Source: Sipunculus nudus (Eukaryota; Annelida; Sipuncula; Golfingiida; Sipunculidae). Taken from it: a stretch of 64,000 nt of DNA. The DNA lies in NCBI GenBank assembly GCA_026874595.1, contig CM049310.1:30505558-30569557 (forward strand), in the 5' to 3' direction. This document shows, piece by piece, positions 3,519 through 57,100 of this stretch. Every line of letters starts with the position of its first letter. Positions within the stretch are counted from its first letter, which is position 1. Both the position numbers and the translations under genes were made by a program. Below the pieces are notes generated by a model. That model was not told the origin of the DNA. It saw only the letters and a list, made by a program, of their open reading frames with translations, and did not search any database.

Positions 3519-6500
3519 GTTGTGTATACTGAACATATATGATGAATGGAAGTTTCTTAATTAAGTGACCACAACATGAAAATGAAAGTTTAACATGGAT
3601 GATACAGGTGCAACTGAGAAATTAAACACTCAGACTTCAGTATTTATAAAGTGACTTGGGATTTGATTACACTTGCTGTCTGTTAATTGTGTTTTACCTG
3701 TGTATAATGTAGTTCACAGGTTTTTGCTGTGTCATTGTCATTAGGAGCTGCACGGGGCGCTGCCTGGTGGAGGATGATGTCAGGAGAACATGTTGGTATT
3801 ATAGGGATGGAGGTAAACATGTTATTCTTTATATGCTATCCACCTTACAATGCATTATAAAGTATATGGACATAAGGTGTGCATGGGTATAGGTTGGGCA
3901 TAGGTATTAGCTTATTATGTATTTGATCATTGTGTTGTAGATTATTAAACTGTTATCCAATTCTTTGTGTAAAGATCACTGAATGTTCTAAATCATAATT
4001 ATATATAGGTGCACATGTTCATTTCCTGAAGCTGTTTAATATTACCTGATACAGTGTGTGGCCGTTATTAGGTTAATGGTTGCTCCCTGTTACTTGATTC
4101 TTTTGTAAGTATACAATTCTCAATCAAATCCTTACCTGTATTTAATTATTACCTTGATATGTAGTGTGTCCATGAAAGGATTCACAGTAGATATTGTGAA
4201 AGATAACGTTAATATGAATGGAGCAACAACTTATCCTAGGCCTGTTTCAAATATTCCTGACATGGCCAGAAAACTGACTGGTCTGTTTCATAAAGAGATG
4301 CTGCTGAAAAGACTGGAGGAGTGTGAGAAACCTTCCCTCAGAACTCTAAAAATGAACATGACACAATACTTATAAATATATAATTGCATAATCCATTGAG
4401 GGTCATGAATATGTAACATATATAGAGGAAATGGACACCCTTCATTTTACACAGATATAAGATGACAGAGGTAACAGCTGGATGAAAAATGCATTTTTAC
4501 CTGTAAAGATCCCCTAATATTCCCACTTGATCAATCAAACATTTTTATTCATTCTATTAGTTTTGAATAACTCCTTTACCTTAGAATATTTCTTATAAAT
4601 GTAGGTGCTCTGTAAAGTTAATATGAAATCATTGCCAAAGTAACAAGAATAATCATTATGCTACAATCCATATAGGAGATGATAGGTGCCAAGCACCTGA
4701 ATGAGACAGGCAGTGACTACTGCTAATATTTATTTAAATTTACTTTTCTGAGCATGGGTACTCCAAAGTTTCAGTTCCAACTGATTATTGTAAGTATGTT
4801 TAATTAACCATATTAATGTGCAGTGTGTAAACTGATGTCAGCTAATGAAAATGGAGCAATTATTTGAAGAAACCAGATCATTAAATTGTGCATAAGTGCC
4901 ACATTTGTTCCTAATTTGTGCAAGTGAGTTCCTCACACATGATCTATCTTAATATTATTCTCTTATGCATAATTCAATATAACACAAAGTGTCTGTGCAT
5001 ACATGTTTAAAGTCCAAGTAACTCCAAGAATTAACCAGTCAGTAACTTAAATTATCTCTAACTGGACACCACCTGCCCTGGCAAATGTCTGGGGAGGCTG
5101 GGGGGGGGGGGGGGGGGGCGCAGAATCAATAGCAGCAGCAGTGTCATCTCCCCAAAACAAGTGCACAATAGGTTTGATGGGCTGATCACATTTTATTTAC
5201 AGTTATAAAGCATCAGGGTATATCTTGGGCTGAGAAAGCCTCAAAGGATTTGTTGCTCCTCTCATATAAACTCCTTGAAACTATAGACTTGTTTACAGGA
5301 CCAGGCCTTGTTGTTTATTGACATACACCCATGAGATCTGTTGTTTACAGCACCAGGCCTTGTTGTTTATTGACCTACACACTGGGGATCTGTTGTGGTT
5401 TACAGGATCAGAACTTGTTGTTTATTGACCTACACACATGGGATCTGTTGTTGTATACAGGACCAGACCTTGTTGTTTATTGACCTACACCCTGGGGATC
5501 TGTTGCGGTTTACATGATCAGACCTTGTTGTTTATTGACCTACACCCTGGGGATCTGTTGTTGTTTACATGATCAGACCTTGTTGTTTATTGACCTACAC
5601 CCTGGGGATCTGTTGTTGTTTACAGGACCAGACCTTGTTGTTTATTGACCTACACACTGGGGATCTGTTGTTGTTTACAGGACCAGACCTTGTTGTTTAT
5701 TGACCTACACCCTGGGGATCTGTTGTTGTTTACAGGACCAGACCTTGTTGTTTATTGACCTTCACACTGGGGATCAGTTGTTGTTTACAGGACCAGACCT
5801 TGTTGTTTATTGACCTACACCCAGGGGATCTGTTGTTGTTTACAGGACCAGACCTTGTTGTTTATTGACCTTCACACTGGGGATCTGTTGTTGTTTACAG
5901 GACCAGACCTTGTTGTTTATTGACCTTCACACTGGGGATCTGTTGTTGTTTACAGGACCAGACCTTGTCATTTATTGACCTACACACTGGGGATCTGTTG
6001 TTGTTTACAGGACCAGACCTTGTTGTTTATTGACCTTCACACTGGGGATTTGGTGTTTGAGCAGACTTTAGCAGGAATCCCTCAGACCATCACCTTGTTT
6101 GTGGAGCCAAGCCCTCTTTGCACTTATGTGGTGGTAGGTAACTATAGGTATTATAACAATCTGTTATATAGATGAAAGAAGAACCAATTCTTCACACCAT
6201 CTGTGGTATTGAAATTGTATTTATAAGTTTTAATATCAGTAGTTCCAAGATGACAGGAATAAAAGTTTGGACTTCAGTATGTTTGTAAATGTGCATATTG
6301 AGGCACTAAAGCACTAAAGCAGTTACTTATGTTAGTCTAGCCTAGCTCTGGTCTCAAAGAATCAGTGTTAACAAAGAAAAATATAGTCACCACTAACTTT
6401 TAACAGTACACAGACCAGGTTGAAGGTTATTCTTGATCTGTATAGTACTGAAAATGTTGCAACAAAGATATTTAATTTGTCAAAATTTATGTTGGCAAAT

Positions 6501-9500
6501 TTATAGTAATGGAAACACATGGTCTTATTGCTGACTTTTCAAGGAAATATTTGATTTAGTTTGGTCATGGCTAATTTTATATTTTATCAATAATCTCTTA
6601 CTGATAAAAATATTTTTGTTTTTTCATGGTAGCCCTGATTACAGATAATCAGTTTTAACCATTCTCAGGACAGTCAGCCTTAAGATTAGCAAATGTCATG
6701 TTGTACCTACAGTCAATAAACCAAGGTGGTGTGCACAACAAGTTCCTTCTGGAGCAGGAGATGGGGGTCACACGCGTTGAGCATTCTGGTCGGGCCGGAA
6801 ACTCCCTGGGCCTCCTACCAGCAGGTCTGTGGAAATCAGTGGGATACACATACTCTGGCGCCACCTGTGAACCAAGTATTTAACTAAAACATCTTACAGT
6901 GGTACTCTGCCTGTCAAAACATGTCAGAAGCATTTGTATGGACTCTCATATGGCAGAAACCAGAATTTTTCTCATATAAAAGTATAAGCACTATTTTCAC
7001 TGTTTAATAGTTTGTTATTCTTATGAGAAAATTTAATTGAATTTATTTACCTGTTGCATAAATAGGTTGTCTGTTAATACGCCATGTTTATATGGTATGT
7101 TTGAGATCATGTTAAATTGAAACACATCCATGGTCAAGAGGAATACTATGCCTGAATTCTTATAATATATTATGGTAATTCACTTTAATAAACTTATAAC
7201 TGCAAGGAGAAGAACAAATCAGGATAGGATGAGGGGTACCCCTATGTTTTGGGTATAAGTTTCTGGGCCAGGCAGAAACCTTAACTAATAGGGTACCTTT
7301 GAACAAGATTATTGTAACTTACGGTAACTCCCGCACTTGCTTATCAGTGCTGTCTAGCATTCAAACTCTGAACGATTTAAAAGTTTAAGATACCTATCTT
7401 TTCGATTAAATGTTAACTTTAATCATATTTCAATGCAACGGAGTGAAGCTTTATGTATTCCTTTTAGGGATCCACTCAAATGTATAATAATAAACAAAGG
7501 AATTAGCCAGTTTTAATGCCTTACTCAAAGTTATGTGTTTCACTAAATGAACACATGATGGCACTGATAAGCAAAAGTGGGAGTTACCGTAAATAACAAT
7601 AACCTTGTTCAAAGGTACCCTATTCTTTTTAGGGCATTTTACAGAAGGGAGAATTGACCCCAATACAGTTTAGGTTGGATTGTTTTTATTGCACAAAATC
7701 TCTGTTACTGAATACAGTGACAGTTGGCTGATGGCTGACTGTTGGTTATTTGAAGGTGATGGCACATTATCACATGATCAGACGGCCTCTCAGATGTCAT
7801 GTCAGTATGCCTGGGGTCGCCACTTGGTAGCAGCACTGTCCTCACATGAGCAGGTCCTCAGGGTAAGCAAATATCAATAATGATATCTGAGCTGCTGACC
7901 ACTATGAGATATTATTCTGATTTAAATTTTCATAATTACTTTGACACAAGACCAATATGATGAAATATTTTTAACTCCTCAAGTGATTATCAAATGATTT
8001 AAAATGTAAAATATCGGCTAAATGGTATGCTTTCCTCACACCCTTTAATTTTTTGTCATTTAATGTAACTGCTTATAAAGACTTTCACATGTCAGGACAG
8101 CAGTGTCAAATTGTGGATATCAGAAATACCTTTACCTGTTGTAGGTCTATGACAGCCTGACGGGTGGGTCAACGTTTTACGAGTATGTCATGCCTCGGGA
8201 TGTTGATAAGCTGCTGATGGTCGACCAGATGATGTTCCTGACAGCAAAAAACAAGATCACTATACACTCGAACCACGCCTCACTCATAACATACACAGAG
8301 ACCACCACCAAACTGGTCAGTGACTTTAATTAACAAGATCACTGTACACTCAAACCAGGCCTCACTCATAACATACACAGAGACCACCACCAAACTGGTC
8401 AGTGACTTTAATTAACAAGGTCACGGTACAATCAAGCCACGCCTCACTCTAACATACACAGAGACCACCACCAAACTGGTCAGTGACTTTAATTAACAAG
8501 ATCACTGTACACTCAAAACCAGGCCTCACTCTAACATACAGAGAGACCACCACTAAACTGGTCAGTGACTTTAATTAACAAGATCACTGTACACTCAAAC
8601 CAGGCCTCACTCATAACATACACAGAGACCACCACCACTATAATTAAAAACTTCACTGTACACACGAGCCACGCCTCACTCGTAACATACACAGAGACCA
8701 CCACCAAACTGGTCAGTAACTTTAATCAACAAGATCTCTGTACACTCAAACCAGGCCTCACTCATAACATACTATAATTAACAAAATCACTATACACTGT
8801 CACTCAAACCATGCCTCACTCGTAACATACACAGAGACCACCACCAAACTGGTCAGTAACTTTAATCAACAAGATCACTGTACACTCAAACCAGGCCTCA
8901 CTCATAACATACTATAATTAACAAAATCACTATACACTGTCACTCAAACCAGGCCTCACTCGTAACATACACAGAGACCACCACCAAACTGGTCAGTGAC
9001 TTTAATTAACAATATCACTGTACACTCAAACCAGGCCTCACTCATAACTTGTACTAAATAACTACCTATCTGGTCAGCAACTTTTAATAAATATGTATAA
9101 CTATTGGAAGATCTTATTTTAATATCTGAACTAATTTGAATATATTTCTTTGCATTCTTTGCTTTTGTAGTCATTATAACACAGTTGCTCTGTTAAACTG
9201 CTTTGCATACGCGACAGGTGTCGCTACTGTTTAAAGCTTGTTCAGTGTAGTAATTTTCTATATTTGGTTCATATGGTTTAGATATACTGACACATTGTGG
9301 CTTATATGTGGAGAACTATGAATGGACAAGATATGGCATTATTATAATAATAGATTCAGTCTGCTATCGTTGTTATTATTGATGTAAGTTTACCGGTACT
9401 CAAAATTCTTGTTATACAATTTATTCTATAATTTATAATTTTGTAATATTGTGATATTATTCTGCAGGTTAGGGTATTCTTTAGGAAGTTGATTATAGTG

Positions 9501-12500
9501 CACTCATTTCAATACTATTTATTTCTTAGTTGGAGATCTTTATTGTGGACCCTTCTTTATGTTTGACTGAAAGTCATCTGAGCTATATATAGCCATCACT
9601 ATATGTCCGTCTGTCCGTCCGTTAACCAGGCACAAATCGTAACGACTGGACCTAGAATCTTCTATCTTGACATGCAGGGAGGCCCAAGGAAAGTCTCTTT
9701 GGAAACCTGAAATTAGGTCTCTTTTATCCATAACCTCTGAGCTATAGGGCTCCGAATTACCCCCCAGAATAATGGAAAATTTGATACAAAAGCTCAAGTA
9801 TCTGAACAACTATTGAATTGGTCACCATGACTGTGCATGATTATTGATCATGGCATGTTGCATCCGTTTCTGCAGTATGGTGGTGCCGTCTGTATTTTTT
9901 TTTAACGAATTTTTTCTCTATTTTTGAGACCTCTTAAGATGCGGCATATGTTAACAGGGCACAAATCGTAACGACTGGACCTAGAATCTTTTCTCTTGAC
10001 CTGCAGAGAGGCCCATAAAAAGTCTCCTTGGAAACCCGAAATTAGGTTTCTGTTACCCATAAACTCTGAGCTATGGGGCTCCGAAATAACCTAACAGAAT
10101 AATGAAAATTTTATACAAAAGCTCAAGTAACTGAACAACTATTGCATAGATCACCATGATTTTTTGCATGGTTATTGATCATGGAATGTTTCATCAGTTT
10201 CTGCAGTCTGGTGGCGCCACCTGTATTATTTATTTTACGATTTTTTTTCTCCATTTTTGAGACTTCTTAAGATGCAGTCATCTGTTAACAGGGCACAAAT
10301 TGTAACAATTGGACTTAGAATCTTCTGTCTTGACACGCAGGGAGGCCCATGAAAAGATATTGATCATGGAATATTTCATCAGTTTCTGCAGCCTGGTGGC
10401 GCCACCTGTATTTTAAAAAAATTTTTTACAAATTTTTTTCTCTATTTTTGAGACCTCTAAAGATGCAGTCATCAGTTAACAGTGCACAAATTGTAAAAAC
10501 TGGACCTAGAATCTTCCATCTTGACATGCTGGGAGGCCCATGAAAAGTCTCCTTGGAAACCTGAAATTAGGTCTCTGTTACCCATAACCTCTGAGGTATG
10601 GGGCTCCAAAGTACCCCCCCCCAGAATAATTAAAAGATTTTTTACAAAAGCTCTAGTATCTGAACAACTTTTTCATTGATCACCATGATTTTTTGTATGC
10701 ATATTCATAAAGGACTATTTAATCAGTTCCTGCACACTGGTGGTGCAACCTGGATTTTTTTGGGTAAAATTTTTATGCATTTTTTCTCTATTTTTCAGCT
10801 CAGCTGACTGTAAGTCATTTGAGCTGTAGTGATCACTCTTTGTCCTCTGTCTGTTTGGCCATCGGGCCATCACCGGATGTCCTTTAACAGGGCACAAATC
10901 GTAATCACTGTATCTGGAATCTTCTTACTTGACATCAAGAGAGGTCCATGAAAAATCTCCTGGAAAACCTAAAATTAGCTCTCTGTTATACCCATATCCT
11001 TCGAGCTATGGGGCTCCGAAGTACCCCCAGAATACTGGAAATTTGATACAAAAGCTCAAGTATCTGAATAACTACTGCATTGATCACCATGATTATGTGC
11101 ATGAACATTGATCATGGATTGTTTTATCACCTCTTACAGACTGGTGGCGCCACCTGTATTTTTTCTATTTTTTATAATTTTTTGGGTTTTTTTTTTAGAC
11201 CTGCAACGAAACTGTCAACTGTTAACATGGCACAATTCCTAACTGCTGGACCTGAATTTTCTAACTTGACATCAAAGGAGGTTCATGAATATATCTCTGT
11301 GGAAACCTGAAATTAGGTCTCTGTTACCCATATTCTCTGAGCTATGGGGCTCAGAAGTGCCCCTCAGAATAATTAAAAATTTTATATTAATTATATTTCA
11401 AGTACATCTTAAAATACACTCTTTGTATTTTCAAGTTCAGCTGAGCATCATGGCCCATGGGCCACTTGTTAAACTTCAAAGCAAAACTGTGACCTGTGAG
11501 AAACAGTTGATGACTTTTGGATGATTTTGGGCTGCTAATGTATTAATACAGAAGGCCAGTAATACATGATCTTATTCAATAGACAACAACAGGAACTTGA
11601 TTCACCATGATTATTTCCTTCCAGAAATGTTAAATATTGTGTTGTCTTCCTTTTTTTGTAGAAAGACTGCATTTTACAGGAGTTCACCCTTCCTGAGTCT
11701 GAGAAAATAATATCAGTAGAACGCTGGGCTACACACACTTCTAACTGGGAAACAAGTACGAGAGCATTTTACGATCACAGCAGACTGGTTGGTATCATGC
11801 CCTCAAGTACAGCACTCGATGGATGTCTTGTTACCACAGAACATGGAGTGTACCACTGTAAGCAGAGGTAAGGATTATAGAGAATAAAACAAGCTTAATA
11901 TAATTTCAGACTTTGTTAAGGATGCACCCATATGGCCTGTGAGTGATGATGTCTATTGGATGGTTGTATGACATTATTATAGTAACACCTGTTTAGGTTT
12001 GCATTCACAGGGACAGGACTAATCCATTTATGATAATGACATAATATTGTGAGTCTCCTAGGTTCCGTGAAATTTCACCATTTTTCCTTATATGGAATGG
12101 GTTTTTTTGGGTTTAAACTGAAGGTGTCAGCCAAGAGGTTTAATACCTAATCCACTTTGCTACATGCTACCCTCTTTATCTGAAAACTAAAATATCTATG
12201 GTATGAATTATTTTTATGGTGTTTTACTATAACAGCATAAAATGCATAAAATAACACAATTTACTGTAATTAGGAATAAAAAAATTAAGTATGAGTGTTA
12301 TCAAAAGTATAATAATTACATATTGAACATTCTGATAATGAAGAAATAAAAACATTTCATTTATTTACCCTAAAACAGCACATTTTTATGAGCTTACTGT
12401 CCAACAGTACAATCATCAGCCTATAGATGGCAGCACCTGCTGACTTCAAAAACCTGTTTGACAATCAGAAAGGGGCCTATTTACCTACCTTTGATAAAGA

Positions 12501-15500
12501 ATTTACACAATTTCTAGCTCACTCTGTGTATATATTGATTATCTAAGGGTAATTCCTGTTAAGATAAGTTCTTATAACACCTCTATGGCGGATGTATGAG
12601 CTTGTTTACAAACAATTTGTTGGTAAACAAAGCAATGTTGACAAGTGGAAAAAACTATTTAACCTAGTGAGGTGGTTGGCTTCATATATACAGAAGTTGA
12701 AAGTTCATTTGTTTTAAAATGCCCTTTGGGAAACTTTGGCTTATCAGATGTCCTAGTTGAATGTGTCTTGATTAATTTAATGGGCCCCTACATACTGTTA
12801 ACAAGTGGATATAAACATAACAAACAGCAAGTGTGTGGCTTGATTGGTGGTTTTTTTTTATCTATTTTTATGAAGGGTTCAGGGGATTATCTTTAGTTGA
12901 CAGACCTCAAATATCCGATTAGGCCCCTTTAACATTACAGCCTATGACAAAACGTGGGACAAGGTTATTAAAGAGAAGATATGTGATATTAAAATGTCAT
13001 GTGATAACTGATGTGTGAGATTTAGTTTTACATAAATGCCTTAGATATTTTTTTCAATAAACTTTTCTATAATTGGTTTTAATGTAATTATTAAACCTAT
13101 CACTGCAGAATCCCGCCGGAGGATCTATTTGTGCAACTTGTACTGAAAGAACCTTCAGGGAACACCGCTGACATGTTTGGAAAAATGGTGGGCCTTAGTA
13201 GTCAGCACTTGTGTGAGGTGGCAGCACTGGCACTGCTTCAAGATGGAGCCCAAGAAGAGATCATAATGGATTACTTTCACAAAGCTAGGGTATGTGTATA
13301 TGATTAATTCTCATAGTAATCTTAGGCAGGTTTTATCTGTTATCAGTGCAGATGGTGGCAAATAAACCTAACAGTGGAGACTGCCCTTGATGTGTAGTCA
13401 TATATCCACATTTATACACTAATGTTTTGAATTGCAGCTACAGACTAGTAATTTTACCTTCTGATAATAAAGGTATTTGTAGGTATTAATGTTTATGTGC
13501 TTACCCAGTCATGTAAGTAAATTGGCTGCAAAAGATAAGTTTATAAATATTGCATGCACCAGAATGTATGTTATTGGATACCCTGCTAATCATCCATCCT
13601 TTCCTGTCGGCTGAGTATCATTTTAACGTTTGGTCACTTTCTATCACATGATCAGTTACAATCTTGAAGAATTGTGTCACAATTTTTTTTATATTTTACA
13701 ATATAATTTTTATGTATATGGAAACATGTTTTATGTTGCCGAGAACTTGATTTTTAATATACATCTAGTTTACAGTTCATAATATTGATTGCAGACTCAC
13801 CTTTTTGAATGAGAAAGTTTACCTTGATATCATGAACATTGTATGACTGATTTCATCATATCTGTATTTATTTACTATTGCTTGAATAGTACTGTGGTTT
13901 TTGTTATAGGCCATGATAGAATTTTGATTCTACCTGGAAAACTTATAATTTAATTAACAAACATGAAATTATTTACAGATATATTTGATGAATGATATTA
14001 TATCTCTGTAATGTGAACTTTTTTAAGACCCCCTTGTGGAAACAAGCCTGCAGCTTGGCCCAGTACAGCTACCAGGAGAAGGCTATCTCCATTCTGGACA
14101 AAATCTGGAAGAAACAAGAGGAAGTTCCAGATGAACAATGGCCAGTCATGGCCAACCTGAAGGTCAAGGTCACTTTAGAACTGAGGGCAAAAGGTCATGG
14201 TCAGACTGACTTTTGCCAAGAATTGTGGTAAGCACACACTAAATATAGGTGGGGAGTAATTATGTTGCCTGTAATCAGCCCACTCATGTATTATGTCAGT
14301 ATCTTTTCTTACCATGCACTATGTACTATCAGCCCACTCATATATTATGTCAGTATCTTTTGCTACCATGCACTGTTTACCATCAGCCCACTCATGTAAT
14401 ATGTCGGTATCTCTTGTTACCATGCACTGTGTACCATCAGCCCACTCATGTATTATGTCAGTATCTTTTGGTACCATGCACTGTGTATCATCAGCCCACT
14501 CATGTATTATGTCAGTATCTTTTGGTACCATGCACTGTTTACCATCAGCCCACTCATGTAATATGTCAATATCTTTTGGTACCATGCACTACGTATCATC
14601 AGCCCACTCATGTATTATGTCAGTATCTTTTGGTACCATGCACTGTGTATCATCAGCCCACTCATGTAATATGTCAGTATCTTTTCTTACCATGCACTAT
14701 GTACTATCAGCCCACTCATGTATTATGTCAGTATCTTTTCTTACCATGCACTATGTACTATCAGCCCACTCATGTATTATGTCAGTATCTTTTGGCACCA
14801 TGCACTGTGTATCATCAGCCCACTCATGTAATATGTCAGCATCTTTTCTTACCATGCACTATGTACTATCAGCCCACTCATGTATTATGTCAGTATCTTT
14901 TGCTACCATGCTCGGTTTACCATTAGCCCACTTATGTATTATGTCAGTATATTTTGATACCATGCACTGTGTACCATCAGCCCACTCACATATTTTATCA
15001 GTATATTTTTCTACCATGCACGGTGTACCATCAGCCCATTCATGTATTATGTCAGTATATTTTGCTACCATGCTCTGTTTACCATTAGCCTACTTATGTA
15101 TTATGTCAGTATATTTTGCTACCATGCACTGTGTACCATTAGCCCACTCACGTATTTTATCAGTATATTTTTCTACCATGCACTGTGTACCATCAGCCCA
15201 CTAACGTATTTTATCAGTATATTTTTCTACCATGCACTGTGTACCATCAGCCCACTCATGTATTATGTCAGTATATTTTGCTACCATGCACTGTTTACCA
15301 TAAGCCCACTTATCTATTATGTCAGTATATTTTGCTACTGTGCACTGTGTACCATCAGCCCACTCATGTATTATGTCAGTATCTTTTCTTACCATGCACT
15401 GTGTACCACTGTATTCAGACAGGGATGGGGGAAGGCTTGTTATTAACACTCTGTAAATTGTTTCCATTATCAAAATGTGTTCACAAGACACGGATGTTTC

Positions 15501-18500
15501 CTTATCCCTACTATAGCAGTTCTTATAGTCACATACTCGTCCTGTTTGTTTAAAGAAAAATAATACTATTTTGGTCCCCCGCTTCCAAAGAATGGGGGAC
15601 ATTGTTTTGGGTTTGTCTGTCTGTCCGTCTGTCCCTTAGTCTGTCCATCCATCAGGTTTTCATTTCCATACAATAACTTTCCTAAATATTATCTGATTTC
15701 ATTCAAATTTGGGTCAGTGATTGCTCTCATGCCTACCTTGGTTGGGATTGGTTTTGGAGTGTCTCTCTGAAAATTTATTATCACCAGCTCCAAAACAAAC
15801 AAAGAATTTCCCTTATGTTCCCAATTCACACGAAAAAGTATGACATGTCGAGACCCTCAGGGGACAATGAAAACTAAAACACAGGCACTCTGACATGTGG
15901 AGACATCTTCAGGGAAAAAAGGGCATTTAACTACTGATAATATTTGTGAAGGAGAAAATAAAGGTTTAGAGTCAACAACTGTATTTAAAATGTTTTGAAT
16001 ATGCAAATATTTTATTATATCAATGTACAATCATTGAGAGTGACCAACTGTATTTAAAGTGTTTTGAATATGCAAATATTTTATTATATCAATGTACAAT
16101 CATTGAGAGTGACCAACTGTATTTAAAGTGTTTTGAATGTGCAATCATTTTATTCTATCCTATAAAATAATTCAATTAAGGCAGTTCCTTTTGTTAAAAA
16201 AAGATTGTTTGGACTATTTTAGTGACTTTCTCCTTGAGAACCGAAGCTACAATGTGCAGGATGCGTTTTCTGATCTGGTGGCATACAAACAGTATGAGAT
16301 GCTGTTCACTGTCACAAAGGTAGGTATGCTACCACAGTTATAAGTACCCTATTTCTTTGATCAGCGCCCAGGTGTTTATTCTTTTCAGACCCTGCTTTGA
16401 CCCAGCTTCTAAACAATGCAGGCATATATTTAAGGCCAGCATATGTTAAAAAAAAAATACATTATCAGGCTCGGCAGACAAAAGCACAAAACAACATACC
16501 ACACAACAAACTCGCCAGTCACTACTTTTGATTGCAATTGAGAACATTGCTGGTAAATGAATTGTGTTTACAAAACATCCTAACATGTCATCTTCTTAAT
16601 CGCGTATCATTAGAACAAGTTACAGGGAATCAGAGAGAGGGATTTTGATGTTGTGTTCAAGAATCTGTCCATGTATTGTCTTTTGAACTTTTAATCAGAA
16701 GAAAATGACATTTAAGTATTTACACAAAGTGCACACTGAAACAAAGTATCTCTTTAGGAAATAGGAATATGAATTATGCTGCTGTTCATAATATATTTTA
16801 TTACCTGAGTGGTGCCATTTGGATATTTGCAAACAGATTATGAACTGAATGAAAAATAGATGCAAAAATATGTTTTTTATTCCATGCCACTGACTTCATC
16901 AGTTACTAAGATCAAATAAAATATCCAGGTAACTCTGATATTAAATATCCAGAATGTGTTTAAATGTACACATGTATCATTCACTCAGAACACATGTTGC
17001 TGTTTCATGAGTGGTTGGTTACCATAATATAAAATGTTAAATCAGTTGTTGGGGATTGGGGCTAAGGTGACCAAGTTTCATATTGATTAAAGTGTCAGAT
17101 TTTTCCATCATTGACTGAATGTACATGTCACGTTTGTGTTTCAGACTTTGGGCCTATATCCTGAGTGTGTAGAAGCTTTGATTGGACATGGAAACACTGA
17201 GAGTGGGGGTAAGTTATTACAATTTATTTTAAGGCTAATCAACATCAGTGTCTAGAGCAATGGAACAACTTGGTCGCAGACACACAAACACACTTTGTGT
17301 ATAATAGTAAAGTATTTATTATAATAAATGGAAGCACTAAACACAATTCCTCTGTTGCATAAAATGGTATCAGGAATAATACTAGGTGTATCCTAATGGG
17401 GTAATTCTCCATATTCTTCAGGAGGAAAGTTGACATTATTTGGGAAATTCCAGAAAGGTCTATAGCAGTACCATTTATCAGAAACTATGCCAGTGGATCT
17501 GGTGGGTGAGCTAAACTTATGGAAAACACAGATGCTTTTAATTATTATCACACAATGCCTCTGTTGTCACACCTCAGAAATGCCATTTTTGTCCTGAATT
17601 GTCAGCAGTGATGTCGAGTGTCTCAGAAGGGAGGTGATCTTCCATATTTTCTCATAAATCCTGAGGAAATTGGTGTTATTTGGCAAATTTCTCTAACTTA
17701 AGGGTCGGTTGCAGGGCCACCTCAGCATAACCATTGGGTCAACCCAGCCCATGGAAAACCTGTCCAGCACAAACCTTGCCAAGAATGGATTGTAATGTAA
17801 GAATGGTTGATATCCTAGATATTTCAAATATTGATTGTTCAGGTAGGAATGGGTAGCATCTGACAGTTTGAGCAATATCCCAACATAAGTGCTCCCAATA
17901 GAATGATTTCCTAAAAAACTTTCAATATATATTTCATGGAAAATATTTAAAGTATATTCAGATTAATGAAACTAAATAAAAAAACAATAAAATATCCTTT
18001 CTCCCTTAATGCAGCAAAAACTTTAATGATTTGTAGATTAAAATTAAAAAAATTGTCAGCTTCTCATGCATCCCTGTCACCATGTAAAATCATAACAAAG
18101 GTAATCCATAATGAGATGCATTGAATCTGATATACCTAAAGATATGAATTTACATCATTTACCTGTTTTAATTCATTGTAATTGATGAAATTCTTTTTCA
18201 GTTCAGATTTCTATTTCTACCAAGTTATTTGATGTAGTTACAATAAGTTATAGTGTCAGAGCTTTTGCTTCTGAGCTGAGCACCATGACCCAAGGGTCAC
18301 ATGTACTAATTATTGAAGAACTAGCCATACTTTTAGGACTGGAGCAGCTACTGGTAAACCTGCTGCCCAACCAGCTGCTGAGCGGCCTGCTCGCAAAGCC
18401 AGACCTCATCCCGATGTTCCTCCAGGAGGCTGCTGCAGGCCTGGAGATGCTGCAGGAGGACCAGCTGCTTCTGCTGTTACAAGTGCTGGACCCATCCAAG

Positions 18501-39500: not shown

Positions 39501-42500
39501 CAGAACTGAAACCAGCCAGTGAGGTGTGCAGCCTTTGTTGTTACGTTTCGTTTGAATTACAGCTCACCGGCCAAGCATCCTATGTGCCCAAGGCCCTAAG
39601 CAAACCATGTCAGGGGCAATTCTCTCTGAGCCTGTGGCCTGTTCAGATGGTTACGCTTGGGGATGAGCTGTCACTCAAAAAGAAATGAATATGATTGGCT
39701 CCATGTACTCCTCGCTTGACTTTGTCTCCCAGCACAAGGTCTCATCTGATTGGACAAAAATACAGTGCTCCCCTCTGGTGTTGCAATTCAGGATACAAGG
39801 TCATAACAAACAGCGCCTTACAATATAGGTAGTAACCCTATAGGTAAAGCGCTGTGTAAAGAGCGTAGCACACATAAGGATTTCAGCTTTTTAGTTTAGA
39901 AAGCTGAAAGAAATTGGCCAAAAATTGTAGCTTTTATTAATGTTTTTATGAGACCATGTCAGACCTTGGCTCTCTCTAGCCCCTCTTGAGTCACCTGTAT
40001 GTTGACCTTGTTGAACTTTCAGCAGATTATGCATGCTTGAGGCGAGGCATAAACTGGGGCAGCCAGGCAGCTTATGGCAAGTCACAGTTGATCCAGGTGT
40101 CCAACCCAACTCATCTAGTAGTTTTAACCAACAACATAACAATAAACAATAAATTAATAAATTTTTATTGGTTTTAAATAACAAATTAAAGAAAAATAGA
40201 AAAGGAATTTGTTAGTTGATAATAACAAGAAATTAACTTGCAGTTACTGATGATATAAGAATCTTGTATCGATGGATAGAATTTCACGTATTCCAAATAA
40301 CACCATGCAGTCACCCATGGTATTTTTCAGTTCAATTTTGATGATAAAAAAGTAAATCATATTATTCATTACTAATCATTAGGGATCATATGAAGGAAAT
40401 TAATGATAGACAAAGATGCAGTTGATAATATTAATCTAGATTCCTACTGTGTCTAGTGTGTACATTGATGTGAAATTAGTCCAAAATGAATATATTACAT
40501 TTATTTTTTTTAATATAAATAAAAACCATAAAACCAGGTACTTATGATCATTATTTAAATGTGTGAATTTTGTATATTCTGGATTCTCAACATCATTGTT
40601 TGGTGAAAACTGAATAAATACCAGACATGGTGCAAATACTTTGCAATTGTATTTAAATACGAATATGAATATGTACTCCATTATAAAATTTCTTTCATAA
40701 GAATGGGAATTCAGGTAAAAATGAAAGTATATGAATACCAGTGCAAATACTTCCAAAATGTATTCATGAATGCATTCATGAATATATTCTTTAATATTAT
40801 TTTAATAATCATTTCAGTTATATTTTATTTTAAAAAATCATATGATTCTCTTATTATTTTTAATAAAAATTATATTTGGGACTATTTGTAATTTTTTAAA
40901 ATAAATAGTTAAACTCTTATATTATATGTTCTGCTTATAAGTTATATGGCCAAGTCAAAATCTGTGTGACAATAGCACTCCATTTGTTAATAAAATATAA
41001 TGAAATTAATCCTCTTCCCTGTCTCCAAAGGTACTATCAAAATCATACATAAGCTAAACAACAACAACTCATAATACAGCTTATTTTTATTACCACATAA
41101 AACCAGCATGTGCCTCATTTCTAAATCATATTTTTTTATCATATATAACAGTTGAGCGCCGTGACCTATAGGTCCCTTGTTTAGTCTTAATTTAAACTCC
41201 TGTAACTACTTGATGTGAGACTGTGATTTAACTTTCTTTTTAGAGCAATACATGGGGCTTGTTATGATGAAAAGGAAGAATTCTCTAGGCTTGAGGATAT
41301 CTTTGATAAGGTAAGACTGGTGCCTGTTATTAAGTAAGTGTCACCACTGGATTGTCTTAACTAGTTATACACTTCCTATTAAACTCCAAAACTTCCTATT
41401 AAAATTAAGGGCTTGTAACCTATAATCTACAACCTAAAACTCAGTTCTGAGTACTTAAGAACATTCTCAAAGTATATGAACAGGTATTTGAATTGGGGCA
41501 TAAAATTACTTTAGTAAAACATAATTCTTTCATTGTGAAATGTTTAAAAAATTATGCGTACCAGTTCTTAAGACTTATTACAAAAAATAGTTTGATTTCA
41601 CTGTAATGTCTGAGGCAATAACTCTCACATACCAGAGACACCTTGATCATGGTCTGTCAGTCTGAGGGTAACAACCAGTGTTTGTGTGAGGATGATAACC
41701 AATGTCTCTGTCAATGTGAGGGTGATTACCAGTGTTTCTTTAAGTGTGAGCATGATAACCAGTATCTTTGTCAGAATGAGGGTGATAACCAGTGTCTTTG
41801 TCAGTGTGAGGCTGATAACCAGTGTCTCTTTACAGGTTTTCACATTCTGGAACAAGAAGCAGCTTGATCACTCACAGCTTGAGAGTTTCCTACAGAAGCT
41901 TGAGGCATTCACTGTGGGCCCTTTATGTTCTGCGTTATTTGGGTAAGCTAAAATTAATTAAATTTGAATTTAATTATTTTTACATACAGTGCATTGTCAT
42001 TTTATTCAACTCATAGATGACTTAAAAATTAGGATACTACATTTTCCTACACTATCCTTATTGTCTTCTTGTATAAGTAACAAAGGTAGAATGAATTCAG
42101 ACTTGACAGTAATACCTTAAAAAGTGCTTTACCTTAATTGTGAGGTAGACAAGAGAAGCACTTCTCACCTGTGGAATTATGGCAATAAAAATATATCTAT
42201 TTTTGTATCAGTTTACAGTGTGGTACATTAACTTGGGATCTTCTCACATAAAGAATTCCTCTTTTTTCCAAACTTAACACAAGATGGCACTGATAGGCAT
42301 CCACAGAATAACATTAAATATTAATTTAAAGCACCATTTATCTTAATAATACTGGTACTAAACTATATTTGGATATGCAGTAATTCAGAAAGATGAACTT
42401 TTGATAACTAAGTATTAATTAATTCTGGTAGCATCAGATTTGAAGAACTTGAATGTTGGTTTTCTTTGTTTGGATAAAATAGCACAATACTCTTTGATCT

Positions 42501-42763: not shown

Positions 42764-43885
42764 CCTACCTGACTGTACCTGCTGTCTCTATATGTACTGA
42801 CATCTTTATGACCTACCTGACTGTACCTGCTGTCTCCATTTGTAATGAGGTCTTTATGACCTACCTGACTGTACCTGCTGTCTCTATTTGTAGTGAGGTC
42901 TTTATGACCTACCTGACTGTACCTGCTGTCTCTATTTGTTCTGACGTTTCTATGACCTACCTGACTGTACCTGTTGTCTCTATTTGTAATGAGGTCTTTA
43001 TGACCTACCTGACTGTACCTGTTGTCTCTATTTGTAATGAGGTCTTTATGACTTACCTGACTGTACCTGCTGTCTCTATTTGTAATGAGGTCTTTATGAC
43101 CAACCTGACTGTACCTACTGTCTCTATTTGTAATGAGGTCTTTATGACCTACCTGACTGTACCTGCTGTCTCTATTAGTAATGAGGTCTTCATGACCTAC
43201 CTGACTGTACCTGCTGTCTCTATTTGTAGTCAGATCTTTATGACCTACCTGACTGTACCTGCTGTCTCTATTTGTTCTGACGTTTCTATGACCTACCTGA
43301 CTGTACCTGTTGTCTCTATTTGTAATAAGGTCTTTATGACCTACCTGACTGTACCTGTTGTCTCTATTTGTAATGAGGTCTTTATGACCTACCTGACTGT
43401 ACCTGCTGTCTCTATTTGTTCTGACGTTTCTATGACCTACCTGACTGTACCTGTTGTCTCTATTTGTAATGAGGTCTTTATGACCTACCTGACTGTACCT
43501 GTTGTCTCTATTTGTAATGAGGTCTTTATGACCTACCTGACTGTACCTGTTGTCTCTATTTGTTCTGACGTTTCTATGACCTACCTGACTGTACCTGTTG
43601 TCTCTATTTGTAATGAGGTCTTTATGACCTACCTGACTGTACCTGCTGTCTCTATTTGTTCTGACGTTTCTATGACCTACCTGACTGTACCTGTTGTCTC
43701 TATTTGTAATGAGGTCTTTATGACCTACCTGACTGTACCTGTTGTCTCTATTTGTAATGAGGTCTTTATGACCTAACTGACTGTACCTGTTGTCTCTATT
43801 TGTAATGAGGTCTTTATGAACTACCTGACTGTACCTGCTGTCTCTATTTGTACTAACATCTTTATGACCTACCTTACAACTTGCT
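42755..43885 (+). repeat. 48-bp minisatellite overlapping the last exon found
   Basis: About 23 units of TTTATGACCTACCTGACT plus GTACCTGCTGTCTCTATT and TGTAATGAGGTC. As 48 is 16 codons, one frame is open for 367 codons from 42673, giving FMTYLTVPAVSICNEV repeats. This may be coding, or an intron array that copies the exon end. Confidence 0.9.
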
Positions 43886-44921
43886 GTATCTATTTGTACT
43901 GACTTCTATATGACTATGCTGCACCATCGCAAAATCTTACACAGTTATCAACCCTTACACGTAATGAATGTTTAATAAGTTTACTTTTTATTATATTGTA
44001 CATCTTACTTTTGCCAGTGCTATATTAATTTTACAGCATTTAAGGACCTGATTTAATTTTGCATTTATTGTATCATCAACATTGTCAATAATAGAAATAA
44101 TGAAATAATAATAATGATAACAGGATGCTATGTCTCATAAGATCAGACTATCAACTCCAGTTCTCAAAGGGATTTTAAATTGATTTCTCATCTTGATCTC
44201 CATTTTATTGGACCATACATTTGGGAAAAATTAAGAAAAAAAACAAGATTGATATTAATATCAGTGAATTAAGGGATAATTTGAAATACTAGTATAAAGA
44301 CTTCCTTAACAGTATTTGCTGCTTTTATTCATTGTTAAACGATCGCTGAAGTTAGGTTTCATTGTGACAGTGGGTAACTTGTGTTTTGAGGGAACACCTT
44401 TCTTCCCCTAACATTATAACTTCACATGGATGTGCCAAGTTGGTAACATGACTCATCAGTTGAAAATCAAATGGCAAATTATTCCATTTAATGACAGAGA
44501 GTTTAGGTCAAGTAGTTCATGCACAATAACTTGGCTGGAGTTCAAGAGGTACACACAGAATTGCTTTGTTTTATATTTACTGTTATGTTTTACATAGGAA
44601 GTTATGTTTCACATTAAAGATTATGTTTTACATTGATTGTTATGTTTTACAGTCAATTATGCCTGACCAAACAGCTATATATGGGGGGGGGGATGATCGA
44701 TGTCATCATCCCCGGTGAACTTCAGAGAATAAAATTTATATATTGGAAATGAAATATATCATGATTAGAATTATGCATTTTAGTTTAATTTCTGAGTTTA
44801 ATATGAAATATTTTATATCTAAACCCGATTTAGAATTAACTTATACTTGAAACAAAATACCTTATTTTCTAAAACTGTATATTTAATTGTAATATATTTA
44901 AATGTTTCACACAGACAATAA

Positions 44922-44985
<64 letters not shown>

Positions 44986-45728: not shown

Positions 45729-45792
<64 letters not shown>

Positions 45793-45931
45793 TATTGAGT
45801 ACGATTAAATGGTTCTTTTCCCAGTACACACTCCTACGTACCCACTTGTTCGTGGTGAAAGCTGAAATTCCTTGCACAAATTATGGAGTTCATCTTAGTC
45901 TCGGTAAAACGGACAACAATCCTTATCAGGC
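43886..45931. other. Gap after the 48-bp array, no exon found
   Basis: AT-rich, with poly-G at about 44683 and two long (AT)n tracts. Frames on both strands at 45191-45808 overlap each other and lack splice-phase partners. Confidence 0.5.
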
Positions 45932-47885: not shown

Positions 47886-47983
47886 ATTATGTGGTCACAT
47901 GCAAATATCATATATGACAGCATTGTCATGATGTTGGTAAATTGCTTTTCATGTATAAACCAGAGCAATATTTCACAGGACAT

Positions 47984-47989
47984 TTTATT
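47984..47989 (-). terminator. Poly(A) signal of chitin-binding gene
   Basis: AATAAA on the minus strand 59 bp downstream of the stop codon. Confidence 0.55.
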
Positions 47990-48047
47990 ATCTATATTTT
48001 CTTCATCCTTTCATGAAGCCACAACAAACGTGCAATCTGTATTTGAC

Positions 48048-48130
48048 TCATGGTGATGCTGTGCCGCAGGGCTCCGGGACGTCCTCCGGCCATTCACAGA
48101 CCTCGCTCACAATGTTAAACACAGTGCCAT
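48048..48130 (-). CDS. Chitin-binding gene exon 4 (domain 2 end, stop)
   Basis: Acceptor TATTGTAG|AT completes the Asp codon. Encodes GTVFNIVSEVCEWPEDVPEP, then CGTASP and TGA at 48050-48048. VCEWPEDV is the typical closing segment of a CBM14 domain. Confidence 0.87.
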
Positions 48131-51100
48131 CTACAATATACCATGTTACAAATAATGAATTTAATGACTACTCTGGTGAAACAGGTGAGAAACTTTTCAT
48201 CTCTTCCAAACCAAAATGTACCTTCTGCACCAAAACAAAGATGCAAACCGGCAGCTCATGAACAGCTGTTTAAATTTTTTTTAAATTGTTTAATTTATTT
48301 TCACAAAAGCCTCGACTGTATAATTATATGATGTGTAAAGAGGCCTCGAAGTGTAATTATATGATGTATTAACAGTCCACGTTTACACAAGAGCCTCGAC
48401 TGTCCGAGCTGTAATTAAATGATGTATCAACTGGCAACGTTCAAAGAGCCTCTACTGTCCGAGGTGTATTTATATGATGTATTAGCAGGCTACGTTTACA
48501 CAAGTGCCTCGACTGTCCGAGCTGTGTTTATATGATTTATCAACAGTCCACGTTTACACAAAAGCCTCGACTGTCCGAGGTGTAATTATATGATGTATTA
48601 ACAGGTTACGTTTACACAAGAGCCTCGACTGTCCGAGGTATAATTATATGATGTTTTAACAGGCTACGTTTACACAAGAGCCTCCACTGTCCGAGCTGTA
48701 ATAATATGATGTATTAGTATGAGAGGATTTTCCACATGGTGTTATTTGATGCTCATTTATCCAGATTATTCAATTATTCGGATATATTGTCTCTTTTAAC
48801 TGATCGTGTAATGGGGGCGGCACTGTATTACAGACTGTTACAATATACCTGGGCAGGCCTGGGAGCCATAATTCTCCCCGTCCAAACAGGTGAAGAAGAC
48901 GGTGCAGTTAAAGTTCATGTCAGGGTACTTGCCGTCCGCCAAGTTCTGACAACTGTGTTCGTCTCCGCATGGGGGCGGGGCAATCTCTGTCCTGCAGTGA
49001 TACATTTACAATAAACAGAGAAAGCAGAGGATCACATTCAAAATACAAAACATAATCGTGTATGCCTTACCCACGCAAAATACCTAATCACCACGTACCA
49101 CGTACCTAATCACCACGTAAATCATCTAAATGTATATACATGTTAATCACGCACACATAATTGTATATATGTGTGTGTAGGTGTGTGTGCGTTTGTAAAT
49201 CTTCTACCGGCGTACGAAAATATCTTATGTGGCGTACTTTTTGCCGCGATGAATGTGTGTTTGTGTATTGGTGCGACACCCTAACAATCTGTGACTGAAT
49301 TGTAATTTTTGCAAATAACGGCCTCTTCGTATCGAACGGAGTTTTAAACTCAGCTGACTTTCAGCCTTGCTGGCTAAAGCGATCACTCTTTGTCCGTGAT
49401 GCCGTCTATCTTTCCGTCTGTCCGTTAATCAGGCACACATCGTAATCGCTGAACCTAGAATCTTCTATCTTGACATCTAGGGAGGTCCATGAAAATTCTC
49501 CAAAGAAACCTTTAATAAGGTTTATGTTACCCATATCCTCCGAGCTCAGATGTTCCTCAAAGAATAATTGAAAATTTAATACAAAAGCTCCAGTATTTGA
49601 ACAACTAATTCATTGGTCACCAAGATTCTTTGCATGCATATTGATCAAGGAGTGTTTCCTTTAGACTGGTGGCGCCACCTGGATTTTTATTTTGAATTTT
49701 TACGCATTTCTTTCTCTATTTTCGAGACCTTCAAAGATGCGGTCGTCCGTTTACAGGGCACAAAGCGTAACCACTAGACCTGGAATCTTCTAACTTGACA
49801 TCCAGGGAGGTTCATGAAAAATCTCTTTGAAAACCTGAAATAAGGTCTCTGTTACTCATTACTGCAAAATGTAGCATTCAGATGATAAAATTCCTTTTGT
49901 CAATGTCTTCCTAGTCAGGTGAGCGTCATGACTTCTGGGTCACTTGTTAAAATGAATGACGGCCACATGATCCTTGTCTGGTAGGTTGGGGCAGAAGCAC
50001 ACGACAATGTTGTGAACCAACTCGCGAACAACGTTTCGTGAAAGCTTAGTTTGATGAATTTCTCGAAGTGAATTTGTTTTCATGGCGGCATTTAGAGAGA
50101 ATTTGTATTTTAGCTATCACTCTTTGTCCGTCGTCCGTCCGGTCGTCCGGTCGTCTGTCTGTTAACAGGGCACAAATCGTAACCGCTAGACCTGGGATCT
50201 TCTAACTTGAAACCCAGAGAGGTCCATAAAAGATCTCCTTGGAAACCTGAATTAAGGTTTCTGTTACCCAAAACCTCTGACATATGGGGCTTCGAAGTAC
50301 CTCTCCGAATATTGGAAAATTTGATACAAAAGCTCAAGTATCTGAACAACTAATTGCATTGATCACCATGATTCTTTGTATGGATATTGATCATAGAGTG
50401 TTCCATAAGTTTCTGCAGACTGGTGGCGCGACCTTTATTTTTTTCTCTCTCTTTTTGAGACCTTTAAAGATGCGGTCGTCCGTTAACAGGGCACTAATCG
50501 TAACCGTTGGTCCTAGAATCTTCTAACTTGACATCCAGGGAGGTCCGTGAAAAAAATCTTGGAAACCTTAGGTCTCTATTTATTTATTTATTTCAATATA
50601 TTTATACAGGGTAGCCTGTTCAGTAATATAGTCTGTTCTTCCACAGGGCCCTGTAACCTTAAAACATGATATAAATACCTGGTAAAGAGATTATAAAATA
50701 TACAGTATGCATATGTAACACAATATATGAATCATCAAAGATACATGTACATAAATATTATATACACGAAAAATAAGTCAGTCATGATATGCTACGATAC
50801 ATTAAACGCTACAATAGGTAAAATTCACTTTATACGTGAACAACGTAGTCGTATATAAAATTTCGTAATACATTCAATGGGTAATGTATGTAAGAAAACG
50901 AGTAAAATGCACAATAATCATAAAAACTAGTATAGACGCGGTTATAAAAGAATCCAAATAATAAAGACGGGTATTGACGATGCATATTAGTAAATAACAT
51001 TGTCTTTAGGTTGTAATACTAAGACTTTAAAAGAAACGCTTTTGTCTTATGTTTAAAAGTATTTAAAGATTTTATAGATCTGATCTCGTATGGCAAGGTA

Positions 51101-54100: not shown

Positions 54101-57100
54101 GACCCAGAATCTTCTTTCTTGATATCCTGAGAGTTCCTCGAACGTTCTCCCCAGAAACCTGAAATTGGGTCACCGTGACCTATATTCTCGGTGTTTTGGG
54201 GTATGTTTATACCCCCCCAAAAATACACACAAATTGCCATTTTCCTCAGGAAAGGCTGGTTGTCATCAAGTTTTGTGTGCTTATGGGTCTTGATGAACTT
54301 AGGCAAATATGCATGAATGATGATGCAAACTACATAATCTTAATTAGTTACCGGTGCAAGAACATGTTGTCAACATGTCAGTCGGCTGAGCGTCATTACC
54401 CATGGTTCACTTTTTTAGTTCAGCAATGGTCGGCAGTTGCTACCTGTAGCTTTCCAGATAAACAGAGGTCGCACTTTTTCGTCCCACGGAGCTTTACAGT
54501 CTTTTGCCTTTCACAGGAAATTTGTGAATTTATATGCATGGCTCCAGTGTCCAGATGTATTTGGACAGCTTGGTGTGATATTTGCGAAGCTATAGGAAAG
54601 ACTGCATGTGGTTGTCGTATATCATCCAAAAGCGCATGAATGGGAACACATCATGTGGCCTAAAAGTTCTACAGTACCTGAACGGACAGTTAGTTCAAGT
54701 TTTAACTAGCATAAGTACATTTATATTAAGACATGATTAGGTAAGGTATATAAACAAAGCTTCAATTGTACACAGCTGCCTACCAACCATAAACTGCTCG
54801 GTTATGTTATTGTACAGCTACCTACCGACTCCACTGCTCGTTGATGTAATTGTACAGCTACCTACCGACTCCACTGCTCGGTGATGTAATTGTACAGCTA
54901 CCTACCGACTCCACTGCTCGGTGATGTAATTGTACAGCTACCTACCGACTCCACTGCTCGGTGATGTATTTGTACAGCTACCTACCGACTCCAATGCTCG
55001 GTGATGTAATTGTACAGCTACCTACCGTCTCCACTGCTCGGTGATGTAATTGTACAGCTACCTACCGACTACACTGCTCGGTGATGTAATTGTACAGCTA
55101 CCTACCGACTCCACTGCTCGGTGATGTAAATGTACAGCTATCTACCGACTACACTGCTCGGTGATGTAATTGTACAGCTACCTACCGACTACACTGCTCG
55201 GTGATGTAATTGTACAGCTACCTACCGACTCCACTGCTCGATGATGTAATTGTACAGCTACCTACCGACTCCACTGCTCGGTGATGTAATTGTACAGCTA
55301 CCTACCGTCTACACTGCTCGGTGATGTAATTGTACAGCTACCTACCGTCTCCACTGCTCGGTGATGTAATTGTACAGCTATCTACCGACTACACTGCTCG
55401 GTGATGTAATTGTACAGCTACCTACCGACTACACTGCTCGGTGATGTAATTGTACAGCTACCTACCGACTCCACTGCTCGGTGATGTAATTGTACAGCTA
55501 CCTACCGTCTCCACTGCTCGGTGATGTAATTGTACAGCTACCTACCGACTACACTGCTCGGTGATGTAATTGTACAGCTACCTACCGACTACACTGCTCG
55601 GTGATGTAATTGTACACGTATTCAGGGTATTCACAATTGATGACTTGTCCCTCCTCTCTTATACACAAAGTATAACTCCGACATCCCGCGCCGTAAACCC
55701 CGTCCGGTTTACCTGTGCAATCCACCTGAGCCAGTGCTGGGAAAGAAGAAAGAGAAAGTTATTGTAGACAATAAATAGGTAATTACAGCTACAGTAAACG
55801 GTATTTAGGAAATTTCCGCTACTGTACAAGGTATACAGGTAATTACCATTATAGTAATCGGTAAATAGAATATCAGAAAAAGCTGTCAAAAGCTCTCAGC
55901 CTAAAGAACAGTGTTTATGGGTGGTAACAGTAACACATATGTAAATATAATTCCAAAGTTAATTCCAATGTTCTATAATAAGTGCTTGATGTCATGGGCT
56001 GATATGGTAAACTGTACACCTGAGTACACAGCCGAAGTTTTATCTCAGCCAACATGGAATAATAATTTTTTGGAAATTGGTAACAAATCTATATTTTATA
56101 ACAAACTCTCTTCTGAGGCATAAATTTTGTACGAGATCTGATGAACAGTGGTGGATCATTTAAAAAGGATAATGATTTTGGTGTTACCTTAACATCTTTA
56201 CAGACATTCCAACTGCATTCAGAATCAGTACCTTAAATTTTAGCCACGGCACGGTTTTTCCCTGTAAGTACTATAGATTTAATTTTTACAGCATGTATAC
56301 ATAAATAGGTCAAGGTCACCCATCTTCGAATTTGACTGAGATTTTGTTGATATGCATCAGCACTGAAGGAAAGAAGTTCCTGTGTTGAAAACTTTTTGAG
56401 ATATCCTGCTCACAAGGCCAACATTGAACAATGCCTACAGGCCTAATGCGAACCTGTGCAATGGGATATACATCAGGTATAATGCTTCCATGCTGAACCG
56501 TCACTTTTCAAGTACATGTGTGACATGTATATGTATAATGCAAGCACTGAATATTTTTAACCAGAGTGCATGCACCAATGACACAAACATCACTGCTGAA
56601 ATCCTGACATAGGTGCACAGAACACAAAAATGAATGTAAGTGGTGCCACCACTTATGAGAAAACCATTAAAGATGTATAGACATAAACAACTTCCGGCTT
56701 CAAACCACTGTTCATCTATGTATACAGATGCATGGAACAACTAGATACAGGTAATGGAAAGCTACTATTATCCGCCAAATTCAGAGCAGTACAGGTTAAG
56801 TGAGGCATGGAATGAGTGGTACGGGGGAAATAGAATGAGATGGATGTTGCACCACCTGAGGCCAATTATTAATTCAGCCAAACCCCAAAAATTGGATCAT
56901 CGGTACCATTTTGGTAACAAATTTTCACCATGTATGCTTGATAGGTATACATGTGTAGGTAATAAAAATGCCTGATAGCAATATGAAAATGGTAGCTTTC
57001 AGTGATTAAATGGATGTTTTATGTCGGATGACGTATATATATATTTTTTTCATTTCAAGGACATCGACTTCAGAGTGGTTATAAGGCCCATACTACTTAA

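What the first reader, a model, noticed from the sequence alone, without database searches (positions are those of the whole stretch)
5285..55612. Splice junctions appear to seed tandem arrays in this genome
Across two genes, three arrays consist of junction copies that are about 70-80% exon with 10-16 nt of intron. A fourth junction has a decoy beside a minisatellite, a fifth array ends exactly on an acceptor, and a sixth overlaps the last exon. Simple slippage has no reason to favour exon boundaries. Tandem duplication of exonic segments carrying splice signals is a proposed route of intron gain; here it seems to continue as array growth, perhaps because extra copies are spliced out and tolerated.
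Basis: inference. Interest (0 to 1): 0.85.

Follow-up and report, generated by a model that had tools for sequence, protein, structure and literature searches.

The report
Splice-junction minisatellites of known "mirage" type
In several genes of this large animal genome an exon end and its splice site are repeated in tandem inside the neighbouring intron; the same structure is already known from amphioxus, and in the sample examined it is not clearly more common than randomly placed repeats would predict.

Summary
Three window arrays are tandem copies of a splice junction: A1 (acceptor, 55 nt), A2 (donor, 82 nt) and A3 (donor, 40 nt), in two genes modelled with consistent phase. Two more lie outside, in a CCT chaperonin gene and a neurotransmitter-transporter gene. 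This is the published amphioxus "mirage" minisatellite, with an intron-gain model already in print (PMC3087553).

Active seeding by junctions is not shown. Of 140 junctions, 3 are overlapped by arrays against 4.2 expected from random seeding. For 20-150 nt minisatellites it is 3 against 1.0 (P 0.08), or 4 against 1.0 (P 0.02) if A3's gene, modelled because of its array, is added. An excess is possible, unproven. The arrays lengthen existing introns.

Best explanation: ordinary duplication between short direct repeats straddling a junction, tolerated because the copy giving a normal-sized exon is spliced. A3 is bounded by GTGTACAATT, found only twice in the window. Three tandem paralogues carry no array, about 7 copies and 20 copies beside intact exons. 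Tolerance fits; splicing itself was not observed.

The parts
5289..6057 (+). A1: array of 14 acceptor-junction copies, 55-nt unit (10 intron + 45 exon)
6011..6133 (+). gene 1 exon 2, modelled exon carrying the last A1 copy
   Evidence: phase-consistent model
8145..8315 (+). gene 1 exon 5, carries the first A2 copy
8250..9084 (+). A2: array of donor-junction copies, 82-nt unit (66 exon + 16 intron) with shortened variants
35849..35928 (+). decoy copy of the exon 24 acceptor region, 900 nt upstream of the modelled one
   Evidence: blastn 75% identity to 36749-36825
35933..36764 (+). GT-rich minisatellite between the decoy and the modelled acceptor (36793/36794)
41684..41829 (+). 30-nt array whose last unit, by eye, runs into the exon 27 acceptor (AG at 41834-41835); no exon sequence in the unit
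42755..43914 (+). 48-nt array starting at the end of the last predicted exon; relation to splicing unresolved
54793..55616 (-). A3: array of donor-junction copies of gene 2, 40-nt unit (about 31 exon + 9 intron)
55586..55736 (-). gene 2 CBM_14 exon, carries the first A3 copy
55608..55617 (-). exon-side direct repeat GTGTACAATT
   Evidence: one of two occurrences in the window, both strands searched
54764..54773 (-). intron-side direct repeat GTGTACAATT just beyond the last A3 copy
   Evidence: the other occurrence
48849..48991 (-). gene 2 next exon (second CBM_14 domain), phase-consistent with 55586-55736
3745..42760 (+). gene 1 span (28 modelled exons, RCC1/WD40_RLD protein)

Best explanation
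These are mirage-type minisatellites. A short tandem duplication arises between direct repeats, one in the exon and one in the intron, so the duplicated segment carries a splice junction. It expands by slippage or unequal exchange like any other minisatellite. Exon definition then picks the copy that gives a normal-sized exon: the last copy for an acceptor array, the first for a donor array. The other copies stay in the intron and drift, so the array costs little and survives. The same duplication wholly inside an exon would usually be removed by selection. Junctions need not attract duplications; they are places where an exon-containing duplication can persist. Shown: the anatomy, the kept splice signals, the open exons, the copy-number differences between paralogues, and direct repeats at two of five arrays. 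Inferred: which copy is spliced, the slippage step, and neutrality.
For: Anatomy and phase-consistent gene models. Direct repeats: GTGTACAATT occurs twice in the 64-kb window, both at the ends of A3; CATGATGAT occurs twice on the gene strand of the 1350-bp transporter piece L052, bounding its array. Paralogue trio: L054 has the exon and an intron that resumes collinearly with the window's intron beyond the array (84% over 96 nt) but no array; L055 has about 7 copies; the window has 20. The exons are 141, 141 and 139 of 151 nt identical and open. The window's copy 21 is closer to L055 copies 5-7 (0.82-0.84) than to L055 copies 1-4 (0.75-0.77), which suggests that the array predates that split and was amplified separately. 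Most decoy splice sites score like the modelled one, and the splice-site columns of A1 and A3 are not more conserved than the rest. Random seeding predicts the pooled junction count: 3 of 140 against 4.2. A1 matched only itself in the genome search and A3 only places nearby on the same chromosome, which suggests local products (that search skips very common words). Published amphioxus mirages splice normally (PMC3087553, PMC3902484, passages).
Against: No RNA data, so which copy is spliced is not shown. Clear direct repeats are found at only 2 of 5 arrays; A1 shows 5 nt (TGTTT) by eye, A2 and the CCT array none that I recognised. A trailing direct repeat can also be a left-over partial copy. 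L054 has only GTGTAC where the array alleles have GTGTACAATT, and could have lost the array. For 20-150 nt minisatellites the junction count exceeds random seeding: 3 against 1.0 (P 0.08), 4 against 1.4 counting arrays within 10 nt (P 0.056), 4 against 1.02 with gene 2 added (P 0.02). In gene 1, 7 of 18 intronic arrays lie within 70 nt of an exon end against about 2 expected, P 0.002; outside it is 1 of 39, but exon annotation there is incomplete.
Confidence: 0.7

Rival explanations
1. Junctions actively seed arrays, for example through transcription-coupled breaks or R-loops at exon ends, so that arrays begin there more often than elsewhere.
For: For 20-150 nt minisatellites 3 against 1.0 expected, 4 against 1.02 with gene 2 (P 0.02); arrays clustered within 70 nt of exon ends in gene 1, P 0.002; similarity to the exon copy declines with distance in A1 (rho -0.61, P 0.03) and in L055 (monotonic), as if the exon end were a repeated source.
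Against: Arrays of all periods pooled: 3 against 4.2 expected; outside sample 1 against 2.5, or 1 against 0.44 for 20-150 nt; near-exon clustering 1 of 39 outside. The window was flagged because of these arrays, so its count is biased upward. A2 shows no steady decline with distance (identities).
Confidence: 0.2
2. Intron birth: the arrays mark introns created by tandem duplication of exon segments carrying AGGT.
For: The route is documented elsewhere (PMC3443670 passages) and was proposed for amphioxus mirages (PMC3087553).
Against: Each window array fills only one side of a longer intron and its unit carries one junction type only; none of these three introns is bounded by two copies of one exon segment.
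Confidence: 0.04
3. Functional tandem splice sites: the copies are used to regulate or diversify splicing.
For: Most decoy sites keep AG or GT with scores like the modelled site; in the transporter gene the 117-nt copies are open in frame.
Against: The main units of A1, A2 and A3 (55, 82, 40 nt) are not multiples of three; in A1 and A3 splice-site columns vary about as much as the rest; copy number differs 1, about 7, 20 between paralogues.
Confidence: 0.04
4. Assembly artefact: copy number inflated by misassembly.
For: Minisatellite lengths are often misassembled (general knowledge; no call tested this).
Against: Copies differ from one another by substitutions, and two paralogues carry distinct arrays at the same exon. 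Reads were not available.
Confidence: 0.02

Closest known systems
Amphioxus 'mirage' minisatellites (Adh3, globins BflGb6 and BflGb9, TnC, PGBD5); PMC3087553 and PMC3902484, passages read
   Same: Tandem copies of 5' or 3' exon boundaries, units of tens to about 160 nt, many copies keeping AG or GT, array beside the authentic exon, different copy numbers (there between haplotypes, here between paralogues), proposed link to intron gain.
Intron gain by tandem genomic duplication (review PMC3443670, passages read)
   Same: Tandem duplication of a segment carrying splice signals.
   Different: There an exonic segment becomes a new intron; here existing introns are lengthened and no new intron is seen.
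Variable internal tandem repeats at human exon-intron boundaries (PMC2812944, passages read)
   Same: Minisatellites at exon-intron boundaries that change gene structure.
   Different: The human cases are segmental-duplication paralogues with RNA evidence of altered splicing; no RNA here.

Membership tests
[quoted passage not shown]
   A1, A2, A3, the CCT array and the transporter array
Mirage minisatellites | Both acceptor and donor boundaries can be involved | tested here: met
   acceptor: A1, CCT, transporter; donor: A2, A3
Mirage minisatellites | Many but not all copies keep AG/GT signals | tested here: met
   A1: 12 of 14 copies keep AG (lost in copies 5 and 6); A2: 7 donors listed, equal scores, while shortened copies lack the donor; A3: 18 of 20 listed donors strong, 2 weakened
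Mirage minisatellites | Regular splicing is not disturbed (RT-PCR) | not testable with these tools
   no RNA; exons open and in phase
Mirage minisatellites | Length instability | tested here: inconclusive
   paralogues with 1, about 7 and 20 copies; no second haplotype or reads
Intron gain by tandem genomic duplication | The intron lies between two copies of one exonic segment that supply donor and acceptor | tested here: not met
   window arrays cover 722 of 2198, 769 of 3346 and 793 of 6594 nt of their introns, one junction type per unit (coordinates); CCT and transporter introns not assessed
   140 junctions: 3 against 4.2 (all periods), 3 against 1.0 (20-150 nt, P 0.08); with gene 2's two junctions 4 against 1.02 (P 0.02, biased)

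The most novel reading that the evidence does not exclude
A conserved exon end acts as a permanent master copy: each new duplication starts from it, fresh copies sit next to the exon and old ones decay outward. Junction arrays would then be renewed conveyor-fashion, giving a several-fold excess of mid-size minisatellites at exon ends in this lineage.
Probability: 0.2. Interest if true: 0.6.

Novelty: new member of a known kind. Interest (0 to 1): 0.38.

Why it matters
It suggests that mirage-type junction arrays are not confined to amphioxus, supplies a random-seeding null for judging them, and gives a tandem gene trio with 1, about 7 and 20 junction copies in which growth, decay and splicing could be studied directly.

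Tried and rejected
Footprint null (placing whole arrays at random): it predicts 6.5 junction overlaps in gene 1 and 12.7 in the sample. I did not use it as the main test because arrays cannot extend over exons. For the same reason the contrast in local duplication, 4 of 140 junction probes against 1849 of 6396 intron probes, is not proof that junctions are avoided.

Homology for the ends of gene 1: C-terminal 190 aa, no match in solved structures up to E 10; N-terminal 388 aa, one chain at E 0.74. For the possible alternative reading of the last exon, one sub-threshold Pfam match (DUF4500, E 0.11), not taken as real.

Clustering of arrays within 70 nt of exon ends: striking in gene 1, not repeated outside, left open.

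Junction calling: adjacent-hit calling gave 18 introns with 20 hit pairs unresolved, so I used a chained exon finder. Its test on gene 1, trained without gene 1 and given 8 of the 28 exons, had 42 of 52 predicted junctions right at penalty 8 and 37 of 42 at penalty 10; penalty 9 was used, with gene 1 added to the training. Of the supporting hits, six came from the session's own chaperonin profile and five of those are weak (E 0.015-0.39). Dropped before the count: 5 known hits not recovered, 58 predicted exons without homology support, the transporter piece (fetched because of its array) and gene 2 (modelled because of its array; added separately). Not used: the bacterial and single-exon Cpn60 hits, and two C12 hits outside the fetched stretches.

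Family tables read by eye for tandem exon fragments (each scores only the best candidates): one case, the transporter; the myosin repeats look like whole alternative exons. Paper searches for junction minisatellites outside amphioxus (listings only, 12 of 28 shown) showed no mollusc case; the library lacks most subscription papers, and the original Adh mirage paper was not read.

Full report
What was checked. The window lies in an unnamed 1.43-Gb genome (G000:C5:30505558-30569557). Gene 1 (+ strand) was modelled by eye and checked by script: 28 exons, 27 GT-AG introns, matching phases, 1213 codons without a stop. Its protein matches WD40_RLD and RCC1. Gene 2 (- strand) has two modelled exons with consistent phase and CBM_14 matches. 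The organism is not known. A myosin gene with four hits over one profile segment, apparently alternative exons, reminds me of molluscs, from recall, and the genome is larger than I recall for amphioxus.

The arrays. A1 repeats an acceptor (10 nt intron plus 45 nt exon), A2 a donor (66 exon plus 16 intron), A3 a donor (about 31 exon plus 9 intron). Among 28 gene 1 exons, 3 (exons 2, 5, 24) have copies of one end in the adjacent intron. The decoy acceptor, the array ending at an acceptor and the array at the last exon are also present. The end of the last exon is unclear, so that sixth case should not be counted.

Outside the window. A CCT gene has an acceptor array, 60-nt period by TRF with about 30-nt sub-units by eye. 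A transporter gene has a 117-nt acceptor array of 3.3 copies, seen first as a Pfam segment (positions 325-358) matched twice more in tandem next to the exon hit at 325-367.

Is it more than chance? In gene 1, 21 arrays of period 10 or more start within the gene, and arrays fill 10,182 of 40,170 bp of its span. Throwing one unit per array at random expects 1.5 junction overlaps; 2 are seen. An independent sample of 10 gene regions (9 chaperonin, 1 kinesin), 148 kb, 53 homology-supported exons and 86 junctions, gives 1 overlap against 2.5. Pooled: 3 of 140 against 4.2. Limited to periods of 20-150 nt, which drops the long repeats of period about 180-340 that look like transposon debris, it is 3 against 1.0 (P 0.08), or 4 against 1.4 counting arrays within 10 nt (P 0.056). 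Gene 1 alone gives 2 against 0.56 (P 0.11), or 3 against 0.81 (P 0.049) within 10 nt. The sample alone gives 1 against 0.44 and 1 against 0.61. A3 is not in these counts, because gene 2 was modelled only on account of its array; adding its two junctions gives 4 against 1.02 for 20-150 nt (P 0.02) and 4 against 4.3 for all periods. Outside, 1 of the 39 non-overlapping arrays does, with incomplete exon annotation.

Origin. A1 matched one place in the genome search. A3 matched three places, itself included, all on the same chromosome. L054 holds the same exon without an array, its intron resuming collinearly with the window's intron beyond the array (84% over 96 nt). L055 holds the exon with about 7 copies. 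The exons are 141, 141 and 139 of 151 nt identical in the three pairings and open. The window's copies 1-20 are on average 96% alike; its copy 21 (0.82 to its own first copy) is closer to L055 copies 5-7 than to L055 copies 1-4, and the flank after both arrays begins TGTACAATTGAAGCTTTGTTT. This suggests that the array began before that gene duplication and grew separately afterwards. Identity to the exon copy falls with distance in L055 (0.93 to 0.68) and in A1 (rho -0.61, P 0.03); in A3 the trend is weaker (rho -0.41, P 0.07); A2 shows no steady decline (identities). Short direct repeats mark the ends of A3 (GTGTACAATT, only these two in the window, both strands) and of the transporter array (CATGATGAT, only these two on the gene strand of L052). 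That is what slippage or unequal exchange between direct repeats would leave, although a partial last copy could look the same. A1 shows 5 nt by eye; A2 and the CCT array show none that I recognised.

How it works. Most inner copies keep splice signals that score like the modelled site, and in A1 and A3 these columns are not more conserved than the others, so nothing suggests that the decoys are used. The main units of A1, A2 and A3 are 1 mod 3, so an included copy would shift frame; in the transporter gene the unit is in frame and open, so there the argument rests on protein disruption. Exon definition, which favours the copy giving a short exon, is the most economical reason why the terminal copy should be used. 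This step is inferred from established knowledge.

Compared with what is known. The amphioxus globin paper describes the same structures, names earlier cases and gives a figure for intron gain from them (PMC3087553, passages read); a second paper adds PGBD5 and cites TnC (PMC3902484, passages). Tandem genomic duplication as an intron-gain route is reviewed in PMC3443670 (passages), and boundary repeats in human segmental duplications in PMC2812944 (passages). What is added here is a different genome, a random-seeding null, and the paralogue trio.

Noticed in passing
G000 contigs C61, C62, C66, C72, C73, C75, C89 (two), C99: Nine intact bacterial-type Cpn60 genes with the same score, with SNF-transporter hits about 257 kb away on C61, C62 and C89: looks like one bacterium (symbiont or contaminant) assembled several times.
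   Followed up: no
window, 34 matches from 2383 to 63318: The palindrome GGTGGCGCCACCTG (up to 2 mismatches, both strands counted) has 34 matches against 0.09 expected, many inside long repeated segments of period about 180-340; probably a mobile element family.
   Followed up: partly
window 51265-53851, - strand: Three long ORFs that look like endonuclease and reverse transcriptase of a LINE inside the gene 2 intron (label recalled, not tested).
   Followed up: no
window 28966-31130, - strand: A possible two-exon gene nested in intron 19 of gene 1 (148-aa ORF plus an upstream exon with a GTAAGT donor, read by eye).
   Followed up: no
window 42556-43914, + strand: The last gene 1 exon may change frame near 42.66 kb; the 48-nt array that follows is a multiple of three and lies in ORFs of over 380 codons on both strands.
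   Followed up: partly
window 14274-15408, 15968-16159, 18577-20527, 22492-22785, 27667-27697, 35933-36764, 41684-41829: Seven of 18 intronic arrays lie within 70 nt of an exon end (P 0.002), not repeated in the outside sample.
   Followed up: partly
G000:C2:44849337-44852248, - strand: Myosin heavy chain gene with four hits over the same profile segment (about 109-153), apparently mutually exclusive exons.
   Followed up: no
L054: The paralogue without an array has an extra 11 nt between the usual exon end and the GTAGGT donor; which donor it uses is unclear.
   Followed up: no
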